Virus record (IMG/VR): IMGVR_UViG_3300031857_000254
Coordinates: 1 to 53,562 of that record
Origin: a virus
DNA length: 53,562 nucleotides
Reading direction: 5' to 3' (one strand)
The notes below the pieces were generated by a model. The model saw nothing but the letters and a program-made list of their open reading frames with translations, was not told where the DNA came from and did no database searches. A program made the position numbers and the translations under genes. This document shows, in pieces, positions 9,783 through 49,195 of the stretch. How positions within the stretch are numbered: position 1 is the first letter of the stretch; every line of letters starts with the position of its first letter.

Positions 9783-12700
9783 ATGGCAAACTATCGGTAC
9801 ACATATGAATCCGGCGGATACCGCTACGTAATCGAAGCCCCTGACGGAGCTACGCCAGCTGACCTTCAAGCAATCGTTGACGGTGCCGGGCGGGCGGCTG
9901 CTCTGCCACCGCCTGCTGCAAAGCCGAAGCCGAAGCCGAAGAAGAAAGAAGACGAGTCGTTTCTTAGCGATGTTGGCGCAAGGTTTAAGGGTGGCATCGG
10001 AAGCCTCGTGTCCGAGCTTGGCTTAACATTCAAGCAGGCAGCAAATCTTACTAAATCAGTTCCTGTTATTGGCGAGATAGATAGACAGGTAGACGCGCTA
10101 CTTGGGGATTACCTTCGGAAATCCGGTGAGGGAATTAAGACTAGGGCTGAGGCTGAACTATCTGAGGCGAGCCTTGAAAATCAGGCTAGGCAGCAGAGAG
10201 AAATAGCTCAATCCGATCCCGGCATGGGTTCTAAAATTTACTCTGGGATTGGCAGATATTTGGCAGCGCCTCCAAGTACTAGTACGAAAATATTTAGTCC
10301 AATAGATTACGCCATCAACGCATTCGCCCGTAACTTATTGCCTCAAACGCCGAAAGAGGCTGCTACTCAAATAGCTACAGTTCAAACGGCAGTTGATACG
10401 CCGCGAAGTCTTGCTGAAACTACAGCGTCAATGTTGCCTGCCACGCTTGCTACGGTCATTCCGGGTAAACTCGTTCAGTCCGGTGCTCGCGCAATACTGC
10501 CGCGCTTAGGGGCTGAGGTTTCTGAAGCGGCACTCAACAAAGTGGTTAGGCGCGGCGTTGTTGGTTCTGGTGCCACAATAAACGCAGCTAGTGCTGGTAG
10601 CCAAGCCTACGAAGATGTGCTTGCCAAAGGCGGAACCCAAGAAGAGGCTGACCGTGCATTCCAGATAGCATTTTCTGGCGCAGCAGCTACGTCTGCCGTC
10701 GCGGCAAAAATACCGGGCCTTGAGCAGCGAGTATTCGCCGGTCAACCAGTGCGGGAAGGTATCCTCCGTTCTGCGGGTCGAGCGGCTATTGGCGAGGCTC
10801 CGCAGGAGTTTGTTGAAGAAGCTGGATCTAAGCTGGCAACAAACATCGCCAAGCTCGGAACCGCAGCGGAAGTGCCTATCGGCGAAGATGTTATGTCCTC
10901 CGGCGCTCTGGGCGCAATCGGTGGAGCGACAATCGCAGCCCCTATCGGCGGTCTTCAGGGTGTGTTCTCTGGGCGTGACACGGGGCCAACCGCTCCAACG
11001 TCCGGTGCTGCACAAGCTCCTCGCACTCCACCGCCTCCTCCGCCTCCGCCACCGCCACCAGCAGACATGGAGGCCCTTGCTAAAGCTCTTGGCCCTGTCG
11101 GCGGCAAAGTCATTCTTCAGGAACCAACCGGGCCGCAGGAATATACATTCCAAGGCTTCGATGAAGACGGCGGCGTTGTCCTCGCGGATGCTGACGGCGT
11201 AGTATTCTCTGAAGATCCAGATCAGATTCAGGCTGCGATCAAAGCTGGCGTCGCTGAGCCTGAAAGCGGCTTGGGCGGCATGGCCTTTGGCATGGATATT
11301 ACAGAGGGTCTGGATGATGTGTTTGCTCCACCGCCTCCTCCACCACCACCGCCTACTGCACCTACTGAGAAACCGAAGTTTACCATTGAAACGGCGGAAG
11401 AAGAAGCGGCGCGGGAAGCTAAGGCCGCAATCAAGTCTGGTGCTGTAGCACCACCGGTATTTTCTCCGGATGTGGCCCCACCGATATTTTCACCGCCTGC
11501 TGGGAAGCCGAAGTTCACCATCGAGATGCCTCCTCCTTCGCCAATGAATGCGCAGGGCAAGTCTCAGGTTGGCAAGGTAATCTTTGACCAAGAAAATGGC
11601 GTCGGTCAGGTTCCGTTGAACCAGAACGTGAAGTATCGCGGCTTCACAGCCATGATGCGTCCATCAAAGTTCCTTGAGCTGGCTGCTGATCTTGAAAAGC
11701 CAAAGCAGTCGAGTCTCGATTACATCCGGCAATCCGTAGAAGAAGGTAAGGGCGTTGGATCGCCATTCCTGAATCTGGATTTTGAAACGGGTAAGGTCAA
11801 GAGCCATGATGGTCGTCACCGGATGATGGTCATTCAGGAAAAGAATGGGGACGTTCCTGTCCCGGTTCACATCTTTGGTAAAGGCGAACAGCGCGCAAGG
11901 TCGCTCGATGAAGGCAAGATCAACTCGTTTGCTTCGAGCATGACTGGTGAAGACGGTAGGCAGTCTACGGACAATTTCTCAGAAGCGTTTCTGGATGAGG
12001 CCGCTGTGCCTGTGTCTGCGCCTGCACCTGTACAAGAACCTGTACAAGAGCCTGAGCTCCCGCCGCCACCACCAGAGCGTGTCCGCACCGTAACCACTCC
12101 CGGTGGATCGAAAGTAAAAACTGCCTTCGAGGTCGTGGATGCAGCCAATCTGACAGCGGCTACAGGCGACCTGCAGAACCGCGACCGCAGCCGATCTTCC
12201 ACTGACCTGCAGGTTCAGGACATCTTCGCTAAGTTTGACCCTGAGCGCCTTGGTGAGAGCCTTGAGAGCGACCGTGGTTCTCCGATTGTTGGCCCAGACA
12301 ATGTGGTCGAGAGCGGCAACGGTCGCGTCTTGGCGATTAACAAAGTGTACGACGAGTCTCCTGAGAAGGCTGATGCCTATCGTAAGTTCATTGAAGATCA
12401 GGGCTTCGACATATCTGGTCTTGATCGTCCAGTTCTGGTGCGCCGCCGTATTGACCGGATGACGCCGGAGGAGCGCTCGAAGTTCGTGCGCGAAAGCAAC
12501 ATGGACACGAAGCTGCAGCTCAGCACCAGCGAGAAAGCTCAGACTGACGCAGCGTCTTTGACCCCAGATGTCATGAGCCTCATGGCGTCTCCTGATGTCA
12601 ATGCTTCAACCAATCAGGGATTTGTGCGTGCGTTCCTGTCGAAGCTGCCAACGCAAGAGCAGGCTGCGTTCCTTGATAAAGATGGTCGGTTGTCAGCTGA

Positions 12701-15275
12701 AGGCACTCGCCGCCTTCGCACCGCTGTTAAATCATCGGCATACGGTGATGCTGACCTGATCAACACCCTTGATGAATCTCAGGACAATAACATCAAGAGC
12801 ATTGGTGGTGCGCTTGAGGATGCTGCCCCGGCATGGCGTCGTATGCTCGATGCAATCAAAGAGGGTGATGTCGAGCCAGAAATGGACACGACCAAGCAGC
12901 TTGTTGAAGCGGCAAAGATTGTTCGCGATGTCCGCAACAAGGGCATGAAGATTGGCGACTTCCTAAGCCAGCAGGACGCATTCAATCCGTTGAATCCTGT
13001 GACGGAGCGGTTCATTCGTTCGTTCTATAATGAAACCTTGGGTCGCGCAGCTGGCCGCGAAGCCATTGCTGACGTGCTTGAAAAGTATGCGCGCCGGGCT
13101 TCTGAGCAGACAACGAGCGAGGGCTTGTTTGAGAGCGATTCAATGTCGCCCGTTGAAATCCTTGACGGCATCTTGGACGAACGCGGCAGTGGCGCTGGGC
13201 AGTCCAATATGTTTGCCAGCATCCAGCCGATCTCGCCAAAGCGTCGAGAGGAGATACTCGATGAGGCCCGCAGGGTTCCGTCATTGTCCCGTGGCGTTAC
13301 CAAGCTCATGAAGCTGTGGGCTGACGGCAAGATAAATGCCAATGAGTTTGCTTTTGAGGTAGCGTCGTACTCTAACTTCATTGAAGACATGAAGAACTGG
13401 AAGCGCTGGGAAGATCTTGGTAAGCTGAAGGTTCGTGGCCCTGACAGGATCAGGTCGGTTCTCCTTGAGCAGAAGCGCAAAGGCAACATATCTGAAGAGG
13501 AAGCTAATTTTGCAGAGTGGTTCATTCTGCGCAATGAAAACCTGCTTAATGATCTTGGCATTTCTGTAGTAAAGCAGCCTAAGGATAGTAGTTTCTTAGG
13601 AGAATATGATCCGCTTTCCCGTGTCATGCGCTTGATTAAAGGCCGGGCTAACGATGGCACGACGGTCCATGAAATCATGCACCACCTTGAGCGCATGATG
13701 CCGCAGGATATTCGTGCAGCAATCAAGCGGGCTTGGGCGAAGGAGCTGAATGAAGTTGAGGTGCTTTCTTACGATGGCAAGAATGAAAACGATACCCTGT
13801 TTTTCCAAGCCATCCGTGCGTTCCATAACCAAGAGCAGATTAAGCTAAAGGATAAATACTATAGCCCTAGCTCGGCATTCAAGTTTGCGACGGGGCTGAT
13901 TTCGTCTGGGAAAGTTGACGGACGCCTCTACCAATATGTGAACCCGTCAGAGTTCTGGGCCGTCAACGCCACTGAAATTTTGCAGGGCCGGTATGATGTG
14001 CAGGGTTCGCTGCTTGGACGCCTGAAGAATTGGCTGCGTGAGCTTTCGATAAAGATCAAGGGTCTCTTCAAGCTGGATTCAAACGCGCCAATCATCAAGG
14101 CGCTGGATAGCTTGGCGAAGAGCGATGGTAAGTTTGTTTCTAACCAGATGCTCGAAGACAAGGCTTTTGAATATGCCAACATACGCGACTCTAAGCCTGT
14201 AACTGCCATTGCAGCAGCGGCGGCATTGGCTTCATCGCCAGCAAGTGCGACTATTAACGATACCCCGATTGCGCCGAACAGCGCTCTCTACAAAACGCTT
14301 GAAAGTGGTGACACGAAGAAGGCCATTGAGTTAATCCAGAAGAGCAGCAAGAACCCAGACGCACGGAAAATGGCCGCCATTCTAGCCTTGAACGGCGTTG
14401 GTGATCAGAAGACGGTTATCCTTGATCCGGTCAACGACTATGACAAAGCGATAGCTACGCTCTCAAAGAACGGAGCTGACGAAGATTCCATTTATCTTGT
14501 GACTATCGGTGACGTTCGCGGCATGGTTCTTTCGACGCCAAAAGATAAGAACATCTACCTTATAAAGAACAAATACCAAGCAGCGAACGGTGTTAATGAG
14601 CAGACGTTCCTGCATGAAGCGATCCACGCTTACGTGAAGGCGCGTTGGTCAAGCGTTGGAGTTTACAATGAACGCAATCGTGAGCCTCTGGAAGATCGCG
14701 GTTTATACAATGAAGATGTCGCGGCAGAGGTCCAGAAATTTAATAACATGTGGCGCAAATTCGGTAATGTTATTAAGAAAGAATACGAGGGTGGCGCAGG
14801 CATCCCCAGTACCGTTATAAGCGCAGCGGAATCTCCGAATGAAGCGCTGGCATACCTGCTGACCAATAAGGATATTCAGGATTTCGCTAAGCGTGTCGTG
14901 AAGGATGGCAGCGGTTACCGTCTCATGAGTGAGAAGGAAGCTGGTAAGCGGTCATGGTGGGATGACTTTGTGGATATGATCCGCAAGATATTCGGCATGG
15001 GCCCGGCGCGAGATCAGTTCTTCAACGACTTCCTAGACGCTGCTAATAGCGTAATAGCGGCGGGTGACAAGGCGAAGGCCGACTTCCGCGTAGCTGCAGT
15101 AAACGAAGAATCGGTTTCACCTGAGAAGGTAACAAACAACAAGCAGGCTGTTCAGGCTCTGATTAATGGGACGCCTAAGCAGATGCGGAATGCGGTTGCC
15201 AAAGCGCAGAAACCCAACGATAAGATCATCAAAGAAGGCGCTGACTTGCAGAAAGAAAACCGAGGGTGTGACTGA
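9783..15275 (+). CDS. Large polyvalent ejection protein: ParB-like, DdrB-ParB-like and two metallopeptidase motifs
   Basis: An 1830-residue multidomain protein. Residues about 1-35 form a small N-terminal module. About 340-640 contain several poly-proline linkers. A ParB-like segment near 620-700 has a DGRHRM motif at about 676. From about 784 to 1110 the sequence follows the DdrB-like ParB pattern (LQNRDRSRSSTDLQVQ, SGNGRVLAI near 844, then RFIRSFYNE), which is typical of phage large polyvalent proteins. Two zinc-protease motifs follow: HEIMH at 1296-1300 and HEAIH at 1611-1615. Such proteins are known to be delivered with DNA to act on host defences or DNA. Here the delivery role is inferred from position among internal virion genes. 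The stop overlaps the next start (TGATG), so the next protein is probably a partner. Confidence 0.82.
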   Translation: MANYRYTYESGGYRYVIEAPDGATPADLQAIVDGAGRAAALPPPAAKPKPKPKKKEDESFLSDVGARFKGGIGSLVSELGLTFKQAANLTKSVPVIGEIDRQVDALLGDYLRKSGEGIKTRAEAELSEASLENQARQQREIAQSDPGMGSKIYSGIGRYLAAPPSTSTKIFSPIDYAINAFARNLLPQTPKEAATQIATVQTAVDTPRSLAETTASMLPATLATVIPGKLVQSGARAILPRLGAEVSEAALNKVVRRGVVGSGATINAASAGSQAYEDVLAKGGTQEEADRAFQIAFSGAAATSAVAAKIPGLEQRVFAGQPVREGILRSAGRAAIGEAPQEFVEEAGSKLATNIAKLGTAAEVPIGEDVMSSGALGAIGGATIAAPIGGLQGVFSGRDTGPTAPTSGAAQAPRTPPPPPPPPPPPADMEALAKALGPVGGKVILQEPTGPQEYTFQGFDEDGGVVLADADGVVFSEDPDQIQAAIKAGVAEPESGLGGMAFGMDITEGLDDVFAPPPPPPPPPTAPTEKPKFTIETAEEEAAREAKAAIKSGAVAPPVFSPDVAPPIFSPPAGKPKFTIEMPPPSPMNAQGKSQVGKVIFDQENGVGQVPLNQNVKYRGFTAMMRPSKFLELAADLEKPKQSSLDYIRQSVEEGKGVGSPFLNLDFETGKVKSHDGRHRMMVIQEKNGDVPVPVHIFGKGEQRARSLDEGKINSFASSMTGEDGRQSTDNFSEAFLDEAAVPVSAPAPVQEPVQEPELPPPPPERVRTVTTPGGSKVKTAFEVVDAANLTAATGDLQNRDRSRSSTDLQVQDIFAKFDPERLGESLESDRGSPIVGPDNVVESGNGRVLAINKVYDESPEKADAYRKFIEDQGFDISGLDRPVLVRRRIDRMTPEERSKFVRESNMDTKLQLSTSEKAQTDAASLTPDVMSLMASPDVNASTNQGFVRAFLSKLPTQEQAAFLDKDGRLSAEGTRRLRTAVKSSAYGDADLINTLDESQDNNIKSIGGALEDAAPAWRRMLDAIKEGDVEPEMDTTKQLVEAAKIVRDVRNKGMKIGDFLSQQDAFNPLNPVTERFIRSFYNETLGRAAGREAIADVLEKYARRASEQTTSEGLFESDSMSPVEILDGILDERGSGAGQSNMFASIQPISPKRREEILDEARRVPSLSRGVTKLMKLWADGKINANEFAFEVASYSNFIEDMKNWKRWEDLGKLKVRGPDRIRSVLLEQKRKGNISEEEANFAEWFILRNENLLNDLGISVVKQPKDSSFLGEYDPLSRVMRLIKGRANDGTTVHEIMHHLERMMPQDIRAAIKRAWAKELNEVEVLSYDGKNENDTLFFQAIRAFHNQEQIKLKDKYYSPSSAFKFATGLISSGKVDGRLYQYVNPSEFWAVNATEILQGRYDVQGSLLGRLKNWLRELSIKIKGLFKLDSNAPIIKALDSLAKSDGKFVSNQMLEDKAFEYANIRDSKPVTAIAAAAALASSPASATINDTPIAPNSALYKTLESGDTKKAIELIQKSSKNPDARKMAAILALNGVGDQKTVILDPVNDYDKAIATLSKNGADEDSIYLVTIGDVRGMVLSTPKDKNIYLIKNKYQAANGVNEQTFLHEAIHAYVKARWSSVGVYNERNREPLEDRGLYNEDVAAEVQKFNNMWRKFGNVIKKEYEGGAGIPSTVISAAESPNEALAYLLTNKDIQDFAKRVVKDGSGYRLMSEKEAGKRSWWDDFVDMIRKIFGMGPARDQFFNDFLDAANSVIAAGDKAKADFRVAAVNEESVSPEKVTNNKQAVQALINGTPKQMRNAVAKAQKPNDKIIKEGADLQKENRGCD

Positions 15276-39734: not shown

Positions 39735-40016
39735 TTGAGCGCAGAGGAACTAAGCCGCAGAGCGGTTGAGCGTATCAGTGAGCTGCGAGATCGCGCCACA
39801 GAATACTCATTAAATGCACGTTTTAGGCCGTCCAGCCAAGGGGAGAAATACTTCCCGGCATCGACGGCGGAAGAGATTGCCCTTCAGGTTCTGGAGGGGA
39901 ATGCGTTGGTGCGTGGCTATACAGCTGCAATTCAGGTCATTGCCGACGAGTATAAACGTATGATGCAGCCTGACGATGATAAAATACCGGAACAAAAAAC
40001 AAGGAGTCATTACTGA
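39735..40016 (+). CDS. Small helical protein in head operon
   Basis: A 93-residue protein starting at TTG 39735 (GGAG seven bases upstream); GTG 39693 is the other option. Helices SAEELSRRAVERISELRDRA and STAEEIALQVLEGNALVRGYTAAIQVIADEYKRMM dominate. Its stop overlaps the GroES-like start (TGATG). It could be a helper of the co-chaperonin or of capsid assembly. Function unknown. Confidence 0.6.
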   Translation: MSAEELSRRAVERISELRDRATEYSLNARFRPSSQGEKYFPASTAEEIALQVLEGNALVRGYTAAIQVIADEYKRMMQPDDDKIPEQKTRSHY

Positions 40017-40474
40017 TGAGCATGAGTAACATTGAGCCGCATGAAGAAGAGCTTGCGAAGCAATTCATAGACGGGCATTTTGTGGAGATGACGGGTCAGC
40101 CGTTTGATATGCGCCCAGCTGGGTATCTTGTGGCTGTAAAAATTTACATCCGCCCTGAAGAGCTGAAGACGATCAAGAAGGAAGACGGCACGGAAGTGAC
40201 GCTTTACCTGCCAGACACGGTTCGCGCTGAAGATAAGTTCTCATCGGTTTCGGCTTTGGTATGCGCTGTTGGACCGGAAGCCTATCAGGGTGAGAAGTTC
40301 GAACGCTCTGGGCCTTGGTGCAAGGTCGGGGACTGGATCCTGATCCCACGCTATGAATCGACAATGGTTTCTTATCGCGGCGTTGCAATGGCGCTTCTGC
40401 CTGATGATCGCGTTATGGCGGTTATCACTGGCCCAGAAGATGTCGAATCAGGCAAGGCTGCTAATAATTATTAA
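40016..40474 (+). CDS. GroES-like co-chaperonin
   Basis: A 152-residue protein following the GroES pattern: RPAGYLVAVKIYIRPEEL (as the first strand pair), a loop KTIKKEDGTEVTLYLPD in the place of the mobile loop, SALVCAVGPEAYQG, KVGDWILIPRYES, and ALLPDDRVMAVI at the end. GroES subunits are about 97 residues; this one has an N-terminal extension and longer loops. It lies between portal and scaffold/coat genes, so it may replace host GroES on GroEL to fold the coat protein, as T4 gp31 does. That use is inferred; the fold pattern is seen. Confidence 0.8.
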   Translation: MSMSNIEPHEEELAKQFIDGHFVEMTGQPFDMRPAGYLVAVKIYIRPEELKTIKKEDGTEVTLYLPDTVRAEDKFSSVSALVCAVGPEAYQGEKFERSGPWCKVGDWILIPRYESTMVSYRGVAMALLPDDRVMAVITGPEDVESGKAANNY

Positions 40475-41512: not shown

Positions 41513-41992
41513 ATGGCACGAGCATCAAGAATCTCGCAGAGCCGAGCAGCAGAATCACGCGAATCCAGCATGCGCAAGCGTCCTGAAACGCACTTCCAAT
41601 CCAAACTATATGTTCCGAAGGACAAAATCCCTGCGGGCATGACATACGCTTGGGTTCGCGAATCAACCCTCAACGAACCCGATCCCGACAACATGACGGA
41701 TCGCATGATTAAGGGCTGGGCTCCAGTTCCTGCGTCACGCCACCCTGAGATGGTCCCTCCTCCCCTTCCCGGCTATGAAGGCTTGGAAGTGCAGGTTATC
41801 CGTCGCGGCGGTCTAATGCTCTGCGAATGCCCGACACGGGACGTTCAGGAGCGTAACGAAGATCGCGATCTGGAAAACATTGAAACCTTGCAAGACGTGG
41901 CATGGACTGGTCAGAGCGACCCGAACCTTCCGCGCTTTGAAGACAAAGACAGTGGCGTCTCGTTCGAGCGCGTCACGTCATTTAAGGATTAA
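41513..41992 (+). CDS. Head-associated structural protein
   Basis: A 159-residue protein, basic at the N-terminus (RASRISQSRAAESRESSMRKR), with KIPAGMTYAWVRES, and LEVQVIRRGGLMLCECP in the middle. It looks like a capsid-associated protein; similar YAWVR segments occur next to coat genes in other short-tailed phages. It is the last gene before a strong terminator, so it shares a transcript with portal and scaffold. Confidence 0.62.
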   Translation: MARASRISQSRAAESRESSMRKRPETHFQSKLYVPKDKIPAGMTYAWVRESTLNEPDPDNMTDRMIKGWAPVPASRHPEMVPPPLPGYEGLEVQVIRRGGLMLCECPTRDVQERNEDRDLENIETLQDVAWTGQSDPNLPRFEDKDSGVSFERVTSFKD

Positions 41993-41999
41993 CCTCCGG

Positions 42000-42028
42000 C
42001 CACAGCGTTATTTCCCCTTGCGCTGTGG
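42000..42028 (+). other. Stem-loop directly after the head-associated gene
   Basis: CCACAGCG (42000-42007) pairs perfectly with CGCTGTGG (42021-42028) around 13 bases. It lies eight bases after the stop and six bases before the terminator hairpin. No T-run of its own. It may protect the message end or help termination. Confidence 0.5.
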
Positions 42029-42034
42029 GAACTT

Positions 42035-42069
42035 CCCTCCGCTCACTCAACTGGGCGGGGGGTTTTTTT
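42035..42069 (+). terminator. Intrinsic terminator before the coat genes
   Basis: An 8-bp stem (CCCTCCGC 42035-42042 with GCGGGGGG 42055-42062, one T-G pair) is followed by seven T (42063-42069). This is a clear intrinsic terminator. It separates packaging/scaffold genes from the coat cluster, so coat genes probably have their own promoter or need antitermination. Confidence 0.86.
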
Positions 42070-42117
42070 ATGTTGTTGACGCAGGTGTTGAATTGAGTTA
42101 GTTCTGATGTCCTCGAC

Positions 42118-42205
42118 GCAGGTCACGTATCCTGCACCTCGATAGTGGTCACGTACCCACTCCTACGGCGGGTAGCCGATTCGATGTCGCGTCACGTATC
42201 GCGTC
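42118..42205 (+). other. Three hairpins with a common TCACGTAY loop
   Basis: In the non-coding leader before the coat cluster three stem-loops share an eight-base loop TCACGTAT or TCACGTAC but have different stems. 42118-42135: GCAGG/CCTGC. 42144-42161: AGTGG/CCACT. 42188-42203: CGCG/CGCG, with an outer G-C pair after a mismatch. Stem bases change while pairing is kept, which argues for a structured RNA or DNA site. The centre ACGT is self-complementary. The rest of 41993-42257 holds the terminator and a possible weak promoter (TTGACG near 42076). Confidence 0.55.
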
Positions 42206-42257
42206 ACCTAGCAGGCAGGTTAAAGCCGAATCATTCATTTTAGCATGGAGAAACCGT

Positions 42258-42854
42258 ATGTCTTACGGAACGAATGCGCCAAATGGTTTTCAGCCCGTCA
42301 AAAAACTTGATGGATCTGCTTGGACTGGCGCGACAAACCCTTACGAGATTGTTACCACCTACGCGACTGCCATTTTCCGTGGCGATCCTGTCACCGTTGC
42401 AAACACAGGCTACCTTCAGGTTGGCGTTGCAGGCTCCGCTTGCGTTGGCGTCTTCTGGGGTGTCAAGTACACCGACAGCACTGGCGTCGTAAAGTTCATG
42501 AACTACTGGCCGGGTAATCCGGGCGTTCTCACCGGCTCGACCGTTGAAGCTCTCGTGATTGATGATCCAGACACAGTGTTCTCGATTCAAGAAACAAGCG
42601 GCACCGGCACTGCTGGCACTCCGCTGGCACTTGCTGATCGTGGCCTGAACATCAACTTCCTTTACACTGCTGGTTCGACTTCGACGGGTTCGTCCGCCGT
42701 TTCGATCAACAACGCAACGGAAGCCGACACCAGCACGCTGAACTGCAAAATCCTCCAGCTCGACCCGACTCCGGGTAACGCTGTTGGCGCTTTTGCTAAC
42801 TGGCTCGTTGTCCTCAACAACCACCTCTATCGTGGCGGCGTGACCGGCATCTGA
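42258..42854 (+). CDS. Capsid-associated / decoration-type protein
   Basis: A 198-residue beta-rich protein (MSYGTNAPNGFQPVKKLDG..., then DPVTVANTGYLQVGVAGSACVGVFWGVKYTDSTG in parts, and a Ser/Thr/Gly-rich second half). Its place just before the coat gene and its Gly/Thr-rich sandwich-like sequence fit a head decoration or cement protein. GGAGA lies before the ATG. It is the first gene after the triple hairpin leader. Confidence 0.62.
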   Translation: MSYGTNAPNGFQPVKKLDGSAWTGATNPYEIVTTYATAIFRGDPVTVANTGYLQVGVAGSACVGVFWGVKYTDSTGVVKFMNYWPGNPGVLTGSTVEALVIDDPDTVFSIQETSGTGTAGTPLALADRGLNINFLYTAGSTSTGSSAVSINNATEADTSTLNCKILQLDPTPGNAVGAFANWLVVLNNHLYRGGVTGI

Positions 42855-42877: not shown

Positions 42878-43783
42878 ATGGCTATTAATACAACCGCAAT
42901 CCGCGATCTGCTCCGGCCCGGTTTGGCCGCCGTTTTTGGCGACTATCCGATGTACCCCGGTCAGTGGTCGGAAATCTTCGAGAAGCACACATCCGATAAG
43001 GCTGTTGAAATCGAAGTCGAAGTCAAGCTGCTTGGCTTGGCGCAAATCAAGGCAGAAGGTGCCTCGACCGCTTACGGCGAAATGGGTCAGCGCTATGTAA
43101 CGAACTATGTAAACCGTTACACCAGCATTGGTTTCATCATCACCCGTCAGGCGATCAAGGACAACTTGTACCAATCGTCGTTCCCACTGCAGGCGAAGGC
43201 TCTTCGTCAGTCGATGGAACAGACCAAAGAAGTTCTCGGCGCATCCGTTTTGAACAACGGCTTCTCGTCGAACTTCCCAATTGGTGACGGCCAGCCACTG
43301 TTCTCGACGGCTCACCCCATCGAAAACGGCACGGTTGCCAACACCTTCTCGGTACAGGCTGACTTGAACGAAACGTCGCTTCAGGATGCCATCGTTGGCG
43401 TTCAGCGCTTCCGTGATGCTGCGGGCCTCCGCATCATGACGAAGCCTACAAAGCTCATCGTTCCAGCCGAACTGCAGTGGACCGCGACTCGCTTGCTGCA
43501 ATCGCAGTTCCGCGTCGATACGGCGAACAACGACATCAACGCGATCTATAACAACTCGGCGGTTCCGCAGGGTCATCGCGTCAACATGTTCTTGACGGAC
43601 ACGAACTCGTGGTTCTTGCTCACCGACGCTCCAAACGGCTTCAAGCACTATGAGCGTGAAGCTCTCGAAACCGATGTCTACACGGACTTCGACACCGACA
43701 ACCTCAAGGCGAAAGCCATTGAGCGTTATTCGTTCGGCTGCTCGAACTTCCGCGCAGGCTGGGGTTCACAGGGCGCTTCCTAA
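42878..43783 (+). CDS. Major capsid protein, HK97 fold
   Basis: A 301-residue coat protein. The sequence has an N-terminal arm, an extended loop region, and the GDGQPLFSTAHP motif (136-147) common in Mu gpT-like coats, followed by the domain with PTKLIVPAELQWTATRLLQ and NMFLTDTNSWFLLTDAPNG. The C-terminal AGWGSQGAS is typical. The strong GGGAG site and its place after scaffold and decoration genes support this. It is the best choice for the most abundant virion protein. A stable hairpin follows the stop. Confidence 0.92.
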   Translation: MAINTTAIRDLLRPGLAAVFGDYPMYPGQWSEIFEKHTSDKAVEIEVEVKLLGLAQIKAEGASTAYGEMGQRYVTNYVNRYTSIGFIITRQAIKDNLYQSSFPLQAKALRQSMEQTKEVLGASVLNNGFSSNFPIGDGQPLFSTAHPIENGTVANTFSVQADLNETSLQDAIVGVQRFRDAAGLRIMTKPTKLIVPAELQWTATRLLQSQFRVDTANNDINAIYNNSAVPQGHRVNMFLTDTNSWFLLTDAPNGFKHYEREALETDVYTDFDTDNLKAKAIERYSFGCSNFRAGWGSQGAS

Positions 43784-44498: not shown

Positions 44499-44504
44499 TG
44501 ATTG

Positions 44505-44524
44505 GGGCGGCCTTCGGGTCGCCC
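44505..44524 (+). terminator. Hairpin with TTCG tetraloop
   Basis: GGGCGGCC (44505-44512) pairs with GGTCGCCC (44517-44524, one G-T) around TTCG, the loop that makes very stable RNA hairpins. It is six bases after the previous stop and has no T-run, so it may attenuate transcription or protect the upstream message. Confidence 0.52.
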
Positions 44525-44543
44525 TAGTTACATGGAGACGGTG

Positions 44544-44795
44544 ATGCGGGCGAAGAAGGACTTTCAGTTTAAGGCGAAGCATAAGAACCCCAAGGGCGGT
44601 CTCAACGAGGCTGGTCGTAAGGCGTATAATGCAGCCACTGGATCGAACCTTAAGCGTCCGCAGCCGGAAGGTGGCTCTCGTCGTGATAGCTTTTGTGCCA
44701 GAATGAAGGGCATGAAAAAGAAACTGACATCCGCCGAGACCGCCAAAGATCCGAATAGTCGGATCAACAAATCACTCAGAGCGTGGAACTGTTAA
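44544..44795 (+). CDS. DUF6321-type small protein
   Basis: An 83-residue basic protein with the pattern HKNPKGGLNEAGRKAYNAATG, then LKRPQPEGGSRRDSFCARMKGMKKK, matching the conserved DUF6321 type of phage structural clusters. GGAG lies six bases before ATG 44544; an upstream ATG (44532) has no spaced site. The single Cys in SFCARM is conserved in that type. Role unknown; probably a minor virion or assembly protein. Confidence 0.75.
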   Translation: MRAKKDFQFKAKHKNPKGGLNEAGRKAYNAATGSNLKRPQPEGGSRRDSFCARMKGMKKKLTSAETAKDPNSRINKSLRAWNC

Positions 44796-47943: not shown

Positions 47944-48170
47944 TGGATACCGGCACCCTCTTTACCATTCTCGGCTTCGTCATCACCGCCTTGAGCTTTA
48001 TAGGGGCTTTGATAACCGTCTGGGTTAATCTTACCAATAAGCTGACGCTGCTTGAGGCGCGTCTCGGCTTTGGCGACGAGAAATTCAACGCCATCGATAA
48101 AAAGTTTGACGAGGTAATGATGCACCTCCGACGCATTGAGGATAAACTGGACAACAAGGCGGATCGGTGA
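47940..48170 (+). CDS. Small membrane protein with coiled coil
   Basis: A 76-residue protein: one membrane helix (TLFTILGFVITALSFIGALITVWVNL, read as about 6-31), then a charged coiled coil (KFNAIDKKFDEVMMHLRRIEDKLDNK). The shape fits an inner-membrane spanin or holin accessory. Start ATG 47940 overlaps the previous stop (ATGA); ATG 47943 is possible. It precedes two exported proteins. Confidence 0.64.
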   Translation: MMDTGTLFTILGFVITALSFIGALITVWVNLTNKLTLLEARLGFGDEKFNAIDKKFDEVMMHLRRIEDKLDNKADR

Positions 48171-49195
48171 TGAATAAAAGGTATTGGGTTCTTGTGTCTC
48201 TCGGCTGGTGTAGCATGGCGCTTGCGCAGACCGCTCCGGTGTCTGTGGCCCCGACCGAATACGTCTACACCACGACAACAACCAGCACATCGGACAACAA
48301 CAATACGTCCACCAGCACGAATACGAACAACAACAACAACAATTCGACCAGCACATCGACGAACACGAATAACAATAACAGCACGTCTGCCAGCACGTCG
48401 GTAAACACCAATACGAACTTCAACACCAGCGAAAGCACTAGCACGTCGGTCAACACGAACAACAACGTGAATGCCAGCACGAGCACGTCGCTGAACACGA
48501 ACAACAATAACAACGTCAGTTCGTCAACCAACACCAACATAAATCAGAACACTGGGACGATGACCAACATCAACCAGAATACGAACATAAATTCTGGCAC
48601 GATGACGAACATTAACCAGAACACCAACGCCAGCACATCCGAAAATACGAACCGCAATTTTAATACGGATGTCAGCAACAGCACCGTAAATCAGACGGTC
48701 AACAGCACCGTCAACACGAACAACACGAACAACGACACCAGCACGATTAACCAAACGACAAGCAGCGATAACCGCAACGTTAATCAGAACAACAACGTCA
48801 ACGTCTCCGACAGCAAAAGCTACAGCGAGAGCGTTAATCGTCAGGTTATCGACCAGAATATTAAGTCGCCACCGCCCAGCGCCATCGCGCCGTCGATGAT
48901 GTCCTACAGCCAAGACCTTTGCACCACCGGCCAGTCTGGCGCAGTGCAGACGCAGATTATTGGCCTCTCGGCAGGCCGCACCGTGCGTGATCAGAACTGC
49001 GAGCGGATGAAGCTGTCGAAGACCCTGTACGACATGGGTATGCGCGTCGCCGCCGTGAGCCTCCTGTGCCAAGACCCCCGCGTATTCGGCGCGATGGAGA
49101 TGGCTGGCACGCCCTGCCCCTTCATGGGTTTGATTGGCGAGGAAGCCCGCGCCGCGTGGACCGAGAACGTCGAGCTTCGCCCTGTCGAGGACTAA
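48170..49195 (+). CDS. Exported Asn/Thr/Ser-repeat protein with conserved C-terminal domain
   Basis: A 341-residue protein. A signal peptide (NKRYWVLVSLGWCSMALAQ, cleavage after ALA near 20) is followed by about 185 residues almost entirely of Asn, Thr and Ser with NTNNN, STSTN and INQNT units, likely a beta-solenoid or extended fibre. The C-terminal 100 residues form a globular domain with conserved-looking Cys (DLCTTGQSG, RDQNCERMKLS, LLCQDPRVFG, AGTPCPFMG). Start ATG 48170 overlaps the previous stop. Possible roles: virion appendage, exported adhesin-like factor or envelope protein. Confidence 0.72.
   Translation: MNKRYWVLVSLGWCSMALAQTAPVSVAPTEYVYTTTTTSTSDNNNTSTSTNTNNNNNNSTSTSTNTNNNNSTSASTSVNTNTNFNTSESTSTSVNTNNNVNASTSTSLNTNNNNNVSSSTNTNINQNTGTMTNINQNTNINSGTMTNINQNTNASTSENTNRNFNTDVSNSTVNQTVNSTVNTNNTNNDTSTINQTTSSDNRNVNQNNNVNVSDSKSYSESVNRQVIDQNIKSPPPSAIAPSMMSYSQDLCTTGQSGAVQTQIIGLSAGRTVRDQNCERMKLSKTLYDMGMRVAAVSLLCQDPRVFGAMEMAGTPCPFMGLIGEEARAAWTENVELRPVED

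What the first reader, a model, noticed from the sequence alone, without database searches (positions are those of the whole stretch)
42118..42205. Three hairpins with one loop sequence and three different stems before the coat genes
The loop TCACGTAY occurs three times within 90 bases, each time closed by a complementary stem (GCAGG/CCTGC, AGTGG/CCACT, CGCG/CGCG). The stem bases differ but pairing holds, so the structure seems to be selected, not the sequence. The elements lie in the leader between a strong terminator and the coat cluster. They could bind a regulator of late genes, act as antitermination or translation control, or form loop-loop contacts through ACGT. I know no phage element of this exact form.
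Basis: partly seen in the sequence, partly recalled or inferred. Interest (0 to 1): 0.8.

Follow-up and report, generated by a model that had tools for sequence, protein, structure and literature searches.

The report
Triple-hairpin leader on phage capsid mRNA
A group of uncultivated phages starts the messenger RNA for its capsid genes with three small RNA hairpins that keep the same loop while their stems change in a matched way, which is strong evidence for a so far undescribed RNA control element whose partner molecule is still unknown.

Summary
The three hairpins (loop TCACGTAY, stems GCAGG/CCTGC, AGTGG/CCACT, CGCG/CGCG) are at the stated place and are the only good matches in the window (CM E 3.5e-6 to 1.4e-5; next best 0.12). 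About 100 related phage contigs carry the element in the same place, normally three copies per leader and one cluster per genome. Among 125 distinct copies, selected without regard to pairing, every one can form a stem (90% uninterrupted; shuffled arms 21%). The unit is larger than described: CGA-N, a 4-6 bp helix, then loop U-N-ACGU-A-Y closed by G-C. A sigma70-type promoter lies between terminator and hairpins, and hairpin 1 starts 8-11 nt after the -10 box, so the array is the predicted 5' end of the capsid mRNA. It is absent from more distant relatives, from unrelated viral contigs scanned and, apart from chance matches, from bacterial genomes. No Rfam family matches. Most likely it is a multivalent protein-binding leader RNA that controls stability or translation of the capsid mRNA; antitermination is a weaker rival. 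The element is well supported; its function is inferred and its partner is unidentified.

The parts
42035..42069 (+). rho-independent terminator (11-bp stem plus T7) that closes the upstream packaging/portal/scaffold operon
   Evidence: 11 pairs, 8 G-C; -19.8 kcal/mol; strong terminators at this place in several relatives
42076..42104 (+). sigma70-type promoter: TTGACG (42076-42081), 17 nt, TAGTTC (42099-42104); start expected near 42110-42112
   Evidence: TTGAC plus 16-18 nt plus a -10-like hexamer in all 58 distinct leaders where TTGAC was within reach; the window's own -10 is a weak match and was not called by the strict scanner
42114..42135 (+). repeat unit 1: CGA + hairpin GCAGG-TCACGTAT-CCTGC
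   Evidence: 26.6 bits
42140..42161 (+). repeat unit 2: CGA + hairpin AGTGG-TCACGTAC-CCACT
   Evidence: 27.6 bits
42166..42178 (+). optional spacer hairpin CGGC-GGGTA-GCCG that fills the long gap between units 2 and 3
   Evidence: nearly all long linkers fold into a small hairpin; short linkers are 1-8 nt
42182..42203 (+). repeat unit 3: CGA + hairpin CGCG-TCACGTAT-CGCG
   Evidence: 25.8 bits
42214..42227 (+). possible second small hairpin GGC-AGGTTAAA-GCC before the ribosome site, present in only some relatives
   Evidence: by eye; weak (3 bp)
42247..42250 (+). GGAG, likely ribosome-binding site of the first gene
   Evidence: ATGGAGA before the start codon is conserved in most relatives
42258..42854 (+). 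first gene of the operon, 198 aa, just upstream of the major capsid gene in the relatives (called DEC here; a head-decoration role is a guess)
   Evidence: phrog_37556, unknown function; synteny
42878..43783 (+). major capsid protein, 301 aa
   Evidence: phrog_371 major head protein

Best explanation
The array is a cis-acting RNA element at the 5' end of the capsid-operon mRNA. It normally holds three copies of one recognition unit: CGA next to a short helix of free sequence capped by the loop U-N-ACGU-A-Y. Shown by sequence comparison: the structure, its conservation, its fixed place after a promoter-like site, and its restriction to this one operon in one phage clade. Inferred: each unit is a binding site for the same RNA-binding protein (phage- or host-encoded), and several units give cooperative binding. 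Inferred with less certainty: binding acts after transcription has started, by protecting the 5' end of the mRNA and/or setting how well it is translated, so that capsid proteins are made in large amounts or in proportion.
For: Structure: 125 distinct units chosen only by CGA and T.ACGT; 90% have at least 4 uninterrupted pairs against 21% (max 31%) when 3' arms are shuffled, and the rest pair with one bulge, one mismatch or one extra loop base. Alignment A2: 88.9% of cells paired against 52.9% shuffled, changes on both sides at all 6 pairs, covariation 0.818 against 0.201; sliding the partner by one column drops pairing to 36-39%. Sense strand: G-U cells outnumber C-A cells 28 to 7 at pairs 2-5, and arrays lie on the coding strand. 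Sequence recognition: A follows ACGT in 128 of 131 and the closing pair is G-C in 128 of 131 units (ACGT itself was a selection criterion). Copy number: 67 of 76 leaders have exactly three; the six long carrier genomes G001-G006 have exactly three good matches each. Anchoring: end of -10 to CGA of unit 1 is 8-11 nt in 58 of 58 leaders, whereas last loop to start codon varies 42-69 nt; this ties the array to the RNA 5' end. Location: only upstream of the DEC-capsid pair.
Against: No binding protein is identified. Proteins shared by carriers and missing from the non-carriers compared are mostly replication proteins and small unknowns, and none has a recognised RNA-binding domain. No expression data exist. 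The promoter's -10 in the window is weak. Stems come from a limited set and may spread by copying between positions, so the number of independent compensatory changes is smaller than the raw counts suggest. Clade restriction would also fit a non-essential element.
Confidence: 0.5

Rival explanations
1. Elongation control: the nascent hairpins, alone or with a protein, modify RNA polymerase so that it reads the long capsid/tail operon without pausing or terminating (like HK022 put RNA or lambda N at nut sites).
For: The array sits directly after the promoter, as putL does after PL (PMC9378689); the operon downstream is long; a hairpin with a conserved loop resembles boxB.
Against: No strong intrinsic terminator is seen downstream in the window's capsid/tail genes; the strong one lies upstream of the promoter. 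Put RNA is two stem-loops with a specific bulge and junction, not repeated identical loops. No N-like protein was found. Rho-dependent termination was not testable.
Confidence: 0.2
2. Autogenous translational operator: a capsid-operon protein binds the hairpins when in excess and blocks translation of its own mRNA, as T4 gp43 and RNA-phage coat proteins do.
For: Phage precedent with a loop-recognised hairpin about 40 nt upstream of the start codon (T4 gp43, PMC3014915). The last loop here lies 42-69 nt from the start codon.
Against: Spacing to the start codon is loose while spacing to the promoter is tight. DEC and capsid proteins are shared with relatives that lack the element.
Confidence: 0.15
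3. Loop-loop (kissing) contacts through the ACGU palindrome, within one leader or between two mRNAs.
For: ACGU is self-complementary; copies occur in tandem.
Against: No leader was seen whose loops had moved together to another palindrome; three loops cannot all pair within one molecule; the longer palindrome UACGUA (N=U) is the minority form.
Confidence: 0.06
4. The element acts as DNA (extruded hairpin bound by a polymerase or replication protein, or duplex operator).
For: Hairpin promoters exist in phage N4 (own knowledge).
Against: A duplex operator needs no variable complementary stem; fixed strand, fixed distance from a promoter, and excess of G-U over C-A mismatches favour RNA of the coding strand. 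No phage RNA polymerase was recognised among the window proteins searched.
Confidence: 0.05
5. Leader-peptide attenuation: translation of a short frame in the leader switches the hairpins.
For: An ATG in unit 3 of one subgroup opens a 19-codon frame.
Against: 31 of 69 distinct leaders have no such frame, it has no evident ribosome site, and no terminator follows the hairpins.
Confidence: 0.02

Closest known systems
ANTAR (EutV/NasR/AmiR) dual-hairpin target RNA
   Same: Tandem small hairpins with variable stems and conserved loop bases, joined by linkers of variable length, in a leader RNA (PMC3369931).
   Different: ANTAR loops are hexanucleotides with conserved positions 1 (A) and 4 (G) and lie at a terminator; here the loop is UNACGUAY, there are usually three units with CGA feet, and no terminator follows.
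HK022 put RNA
   Same: Structured RNA; putL lies immediately downstream of a phage promoter (PMC9378689).
   Different: Two stem-loops of about 70 nt with a specific bulge and junction, acting on early operons; no repeated loop.
Lambda boxB / nut site
   Same: Short hairpin with a conserved loop in a phage leader (own knowledge).
   Different: Pentaloop boxB with boxA and N protein; no N-like protein was found here.
T4/RB69 gene 43 translational operator
   Same: Phage hairpin with conserved loop bases upstream of a start codon, bound by a protein (PMC3014915).
   Different: Single hairpin, loop -UAAC-, binding extends over the ribosome site; here usually three units anchored to the transcript start.

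Membership tests
ANTAR target RNA | two hairpins with hexanucleotide loops, A at position 1 and G at position 4 | tested here: not met
   Loop is UNACGUAY, 8 nt, closed by G-C; read as a hexaloop inside U and Y it has no fixed A at position 1.
ANTAR target RNA | hairpins lie at an intrinsic terminator that they can displace | tested here: not met
   No terminator follows the hairpins; the only strong one is upstream.
HK022 put RNA | located just downstream of a phage promoter | tested here: met
   8-11 nt from -10 to unit 1 in 58 of 58 leaders; true of putL, not of putR.
HK022 put RNA | two-stem V-shaped RNA that binds the beta' zinc-binding domain and suppresses termination | not testable with these tools
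   Needs transcription assays; the primary architecture differs (repeated identical loops).
Lambda nut / boxB | boxB pentaloop hairpin | tested here: not met
   Loop is 8 nt.
Lambda nut / boxB | boxA and an N-type antiterminator protein | tested here: inconclusive
   No N-like protein in domain searches, but N proteins are short and diverse; boxA was not searched for separately.
Any Rfam 15 family | match at or above the gathering score | tested here: not met
   No match over the window; below threshold only hits on the terminator region 41922-42074, none on the hairpins.
T4 gene 43-type translational operator | protein bound from the hairpin over the ribosome-binding site | not testable with these tools
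   Needs binding data; the loose spacing to the start codon argues against it.

The most novel reading that the evidence does not exclude
A previously undescribed class of phage leader RNA: a three-site array of CGA-stem-UNACGUAY units read by a dedicated, as yet unknown RNA-binding protein that controls the capsid mRNA in a widespread uncultivated phage group.
Probability: 0.4. Interest if true: 0.75.

Novelty: new variant of a known kind. Interest (0 to 1): 0.6.

Why it matters
Post-transcriptional control of structural genes in tailed phages is known from a handful of model phages. Here comparison of uncultivated phages defines a compact, repeated RNA recognition unit precisely enough to test and to use as bait for its partner. 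If a dedicated protein reads it, it is a new RNA-protein pair and a possible RNA-tagging tool.

Tried and rejected
Rfam at gathering and permissive thresholds: nothing on the hairpins. Presence in bacterial genomes: 78 pattern hits in genome contigs, close to my rough expectation of about 58 by chance; those with two stems were simple repeats or phage contigs binned in MAGs. Model R1 in 96 and 99 bacterial genomes: the further hits inspected are single, mostly inside long reading frames, and without the array. Unrelated phages: looser loops GTAACGTAYC and GTTACGTAYC gave true arrays only in this family. Distant isolates (HTVC023P, HTVC027P, CRP-902, DSL-LC04, QDWS535, GB2A, ct7L0027): no array. 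Co-occurring RNA-binding protein: no convincing candidate. Start-codon hairpin CCGUA-UGUCU-UACGG as a conserved switch: absent in several relatives. Leader peptide: rejected. Literature search for the loop and for tandem phage leaders: only ANTAR came close.

Full report
Observation. The loop octamer alone is unremarkable in the window (5 found, 1.9 expected). What is not chance is its combination with stems and tandem spacing: the pattern including CGA occurs once and in none of 100 shuffles, and a covariance model built from the family finds exactly these three sites with low E-values (3.5e-6, 7.7e-6, 1.4e-5; next 0.12). The model's alignment includes the window's own units, so this is a check of uniqueness and not independent proof. 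The leader's overall folding energy is ordinary (z -0.12), as expected for short hairpins; the case rests on comparison.

Setting. The window is a virus record of 53,562 bases. The genes in order are terminase, portal, a GroES-like protein, an acidic scaffold-like protein, a 159-aa unknown, then the leader, a 198-aa unknown (called DEC here), and the major capsid protein. The best annotated phages share only about 28-47% capsid identity.

Relatives. A capsid-protein search brought 80 close loci; most that hold the leader carry one to three exact copies. A search by pattern alone, independent of the protein, found 95 stretches in viral contigs. Of those read, all but a few (L086, L087, L113, L118, L124, L145, L149) belong to this phage family, and those few lack the full stems. 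True arrays lie between the 159-aa gene and DEC, on the coding strand. Looser loop patterns again gave arrays only in this family. Carriers reach down to about 64% capsid identity (L103/L243-L245). Relatives at 55-63% whose leader could be read, and the named isolates, lack it.

Covariation. Units were re-collected using only CGA and T.ACGT, not pairing. Of 125 distinct units, 112 have at least 4 uninterrupted pairs. The other 13 have one inserted loop base (TCACGT[TC]AY), one bulged base, or one mismatch, and by eye still close. Shuffling the 3' arms gives 21%. Counting on alignment A2 gives a covariation score of 0.818 against 0.201 for shuffles and 0.13-0.26 for slid partners. The sequences are related, and the stems form a limited set (17 four-base types), some of which recur at different positions, so part of the diversity may come from copying of whole hairpins and not from paired point changes. 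Either way complementarity is kept.

Anatomy of the leader. In all 58 distinct leaders in which TTGAC lay within reach there is a -10-like hexamer 16-18 nt on (17 in 47), and the CGA of unit 1 begins 8-11 nt after it. A transcript would be expected to start a few nt before the first unit. Three units is the rule (67 of 76). Loop-to-loop spacing is 25-32 or 42-49 nt; the long spacings nearly all contain an extra hairpin without the UNACGUAY loop (CGGC-GGGTA-GCCG in the window), and the short linkers are only 1-8 nt. The distance from the last loop to the start codon is looser (42-69 nt).

Mechanism. A fixed loop sequence on a free stem, repeated three times, with a fixed CGA beside it, is the pattern expected of sites read by a protein. 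The tight link to the transcript start and the loose link to the start codon favour action at the RNA 5' end or on the elongating polymerase over an operator that covers the ribosome site. Antitermination is weakened because the window's strong intrinsic terminator lies before the promoter and none of similar strength was found after it in the capsid genes. I therefore favour control of stability or translation through a bound protein, at about 50%, with the structure itself close to certain. The binding partner is inferred, not shown: comparison with seven carrier and four non-carrier genomes and domain searches gave no clear candidate. A host protein is equally possible, and the host is unknown. 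Two MAGs contain contigs of these phages (an alphaproteobacterium, L212, and an actinomycetote with two such contigs, L230/L355), but binning of phage contigs is unreliable.

Known systems. ANTAR target RNA is the nearest in form (PMC3369931) but fails on loop size, loop bases and terminator. HK022 put (PMC9378689) matches in position only. The T4 gene 43 operator (PMC3014915) matches in being a phage hairpin with a recognised loop. No Rfam 15 family matches. I file it as a new variant of the known kind 'phage leader RNA hairpins read by a protein', and not as a member of any named family.

Noticed in passing
42000-42028: A perfect 8-bp inverted repeat CCACAGCG/CGCTGTGG directly after the 159-aa gene and before the terminator.
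   Followed up: no
42166-42178 and the long linkers of relatives: Spacer hairpins in the long linkers have varied stems but loops that tend to contain GG followed by T or C (GGGTA, ATGGCAG, AGGTCA); possibly a second, weaker motif.
   Followed up: partly
42254-42268: The start codon of the 198-aa gene lies in a possible hairpin CCGUA-UGUCU-UACGG, present in most but not all relatives.
   Followed up: partly
L247:2160-2345: A relative without the motif also has a promoter-like site and a strongly structured leader before the same gene pair, with unrelated loops.
   Followed up: partly
40016-40474: A GroES-type co-chaperonin gene in the head gene cluster, shared with most of the distant phages.
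   Followed up: no
9783-15275: A single 1830-aa reading frame in the late region; not analysed.
   Followed up: no
44502-44795: DUF6321 protein, which matches the C-terminal end of many longer phage protein families in PHROGs.
   Followed up: no
48167-49195: A 342-aa frame rich in Asn, Ser and Thr with long low-complexity repeats.
   Followed up: no
L355, L356 (MAG G011): Two separate contigs of this phage family binned into one actinomycetote MAG; a weak host hint.
   Followed up: partly
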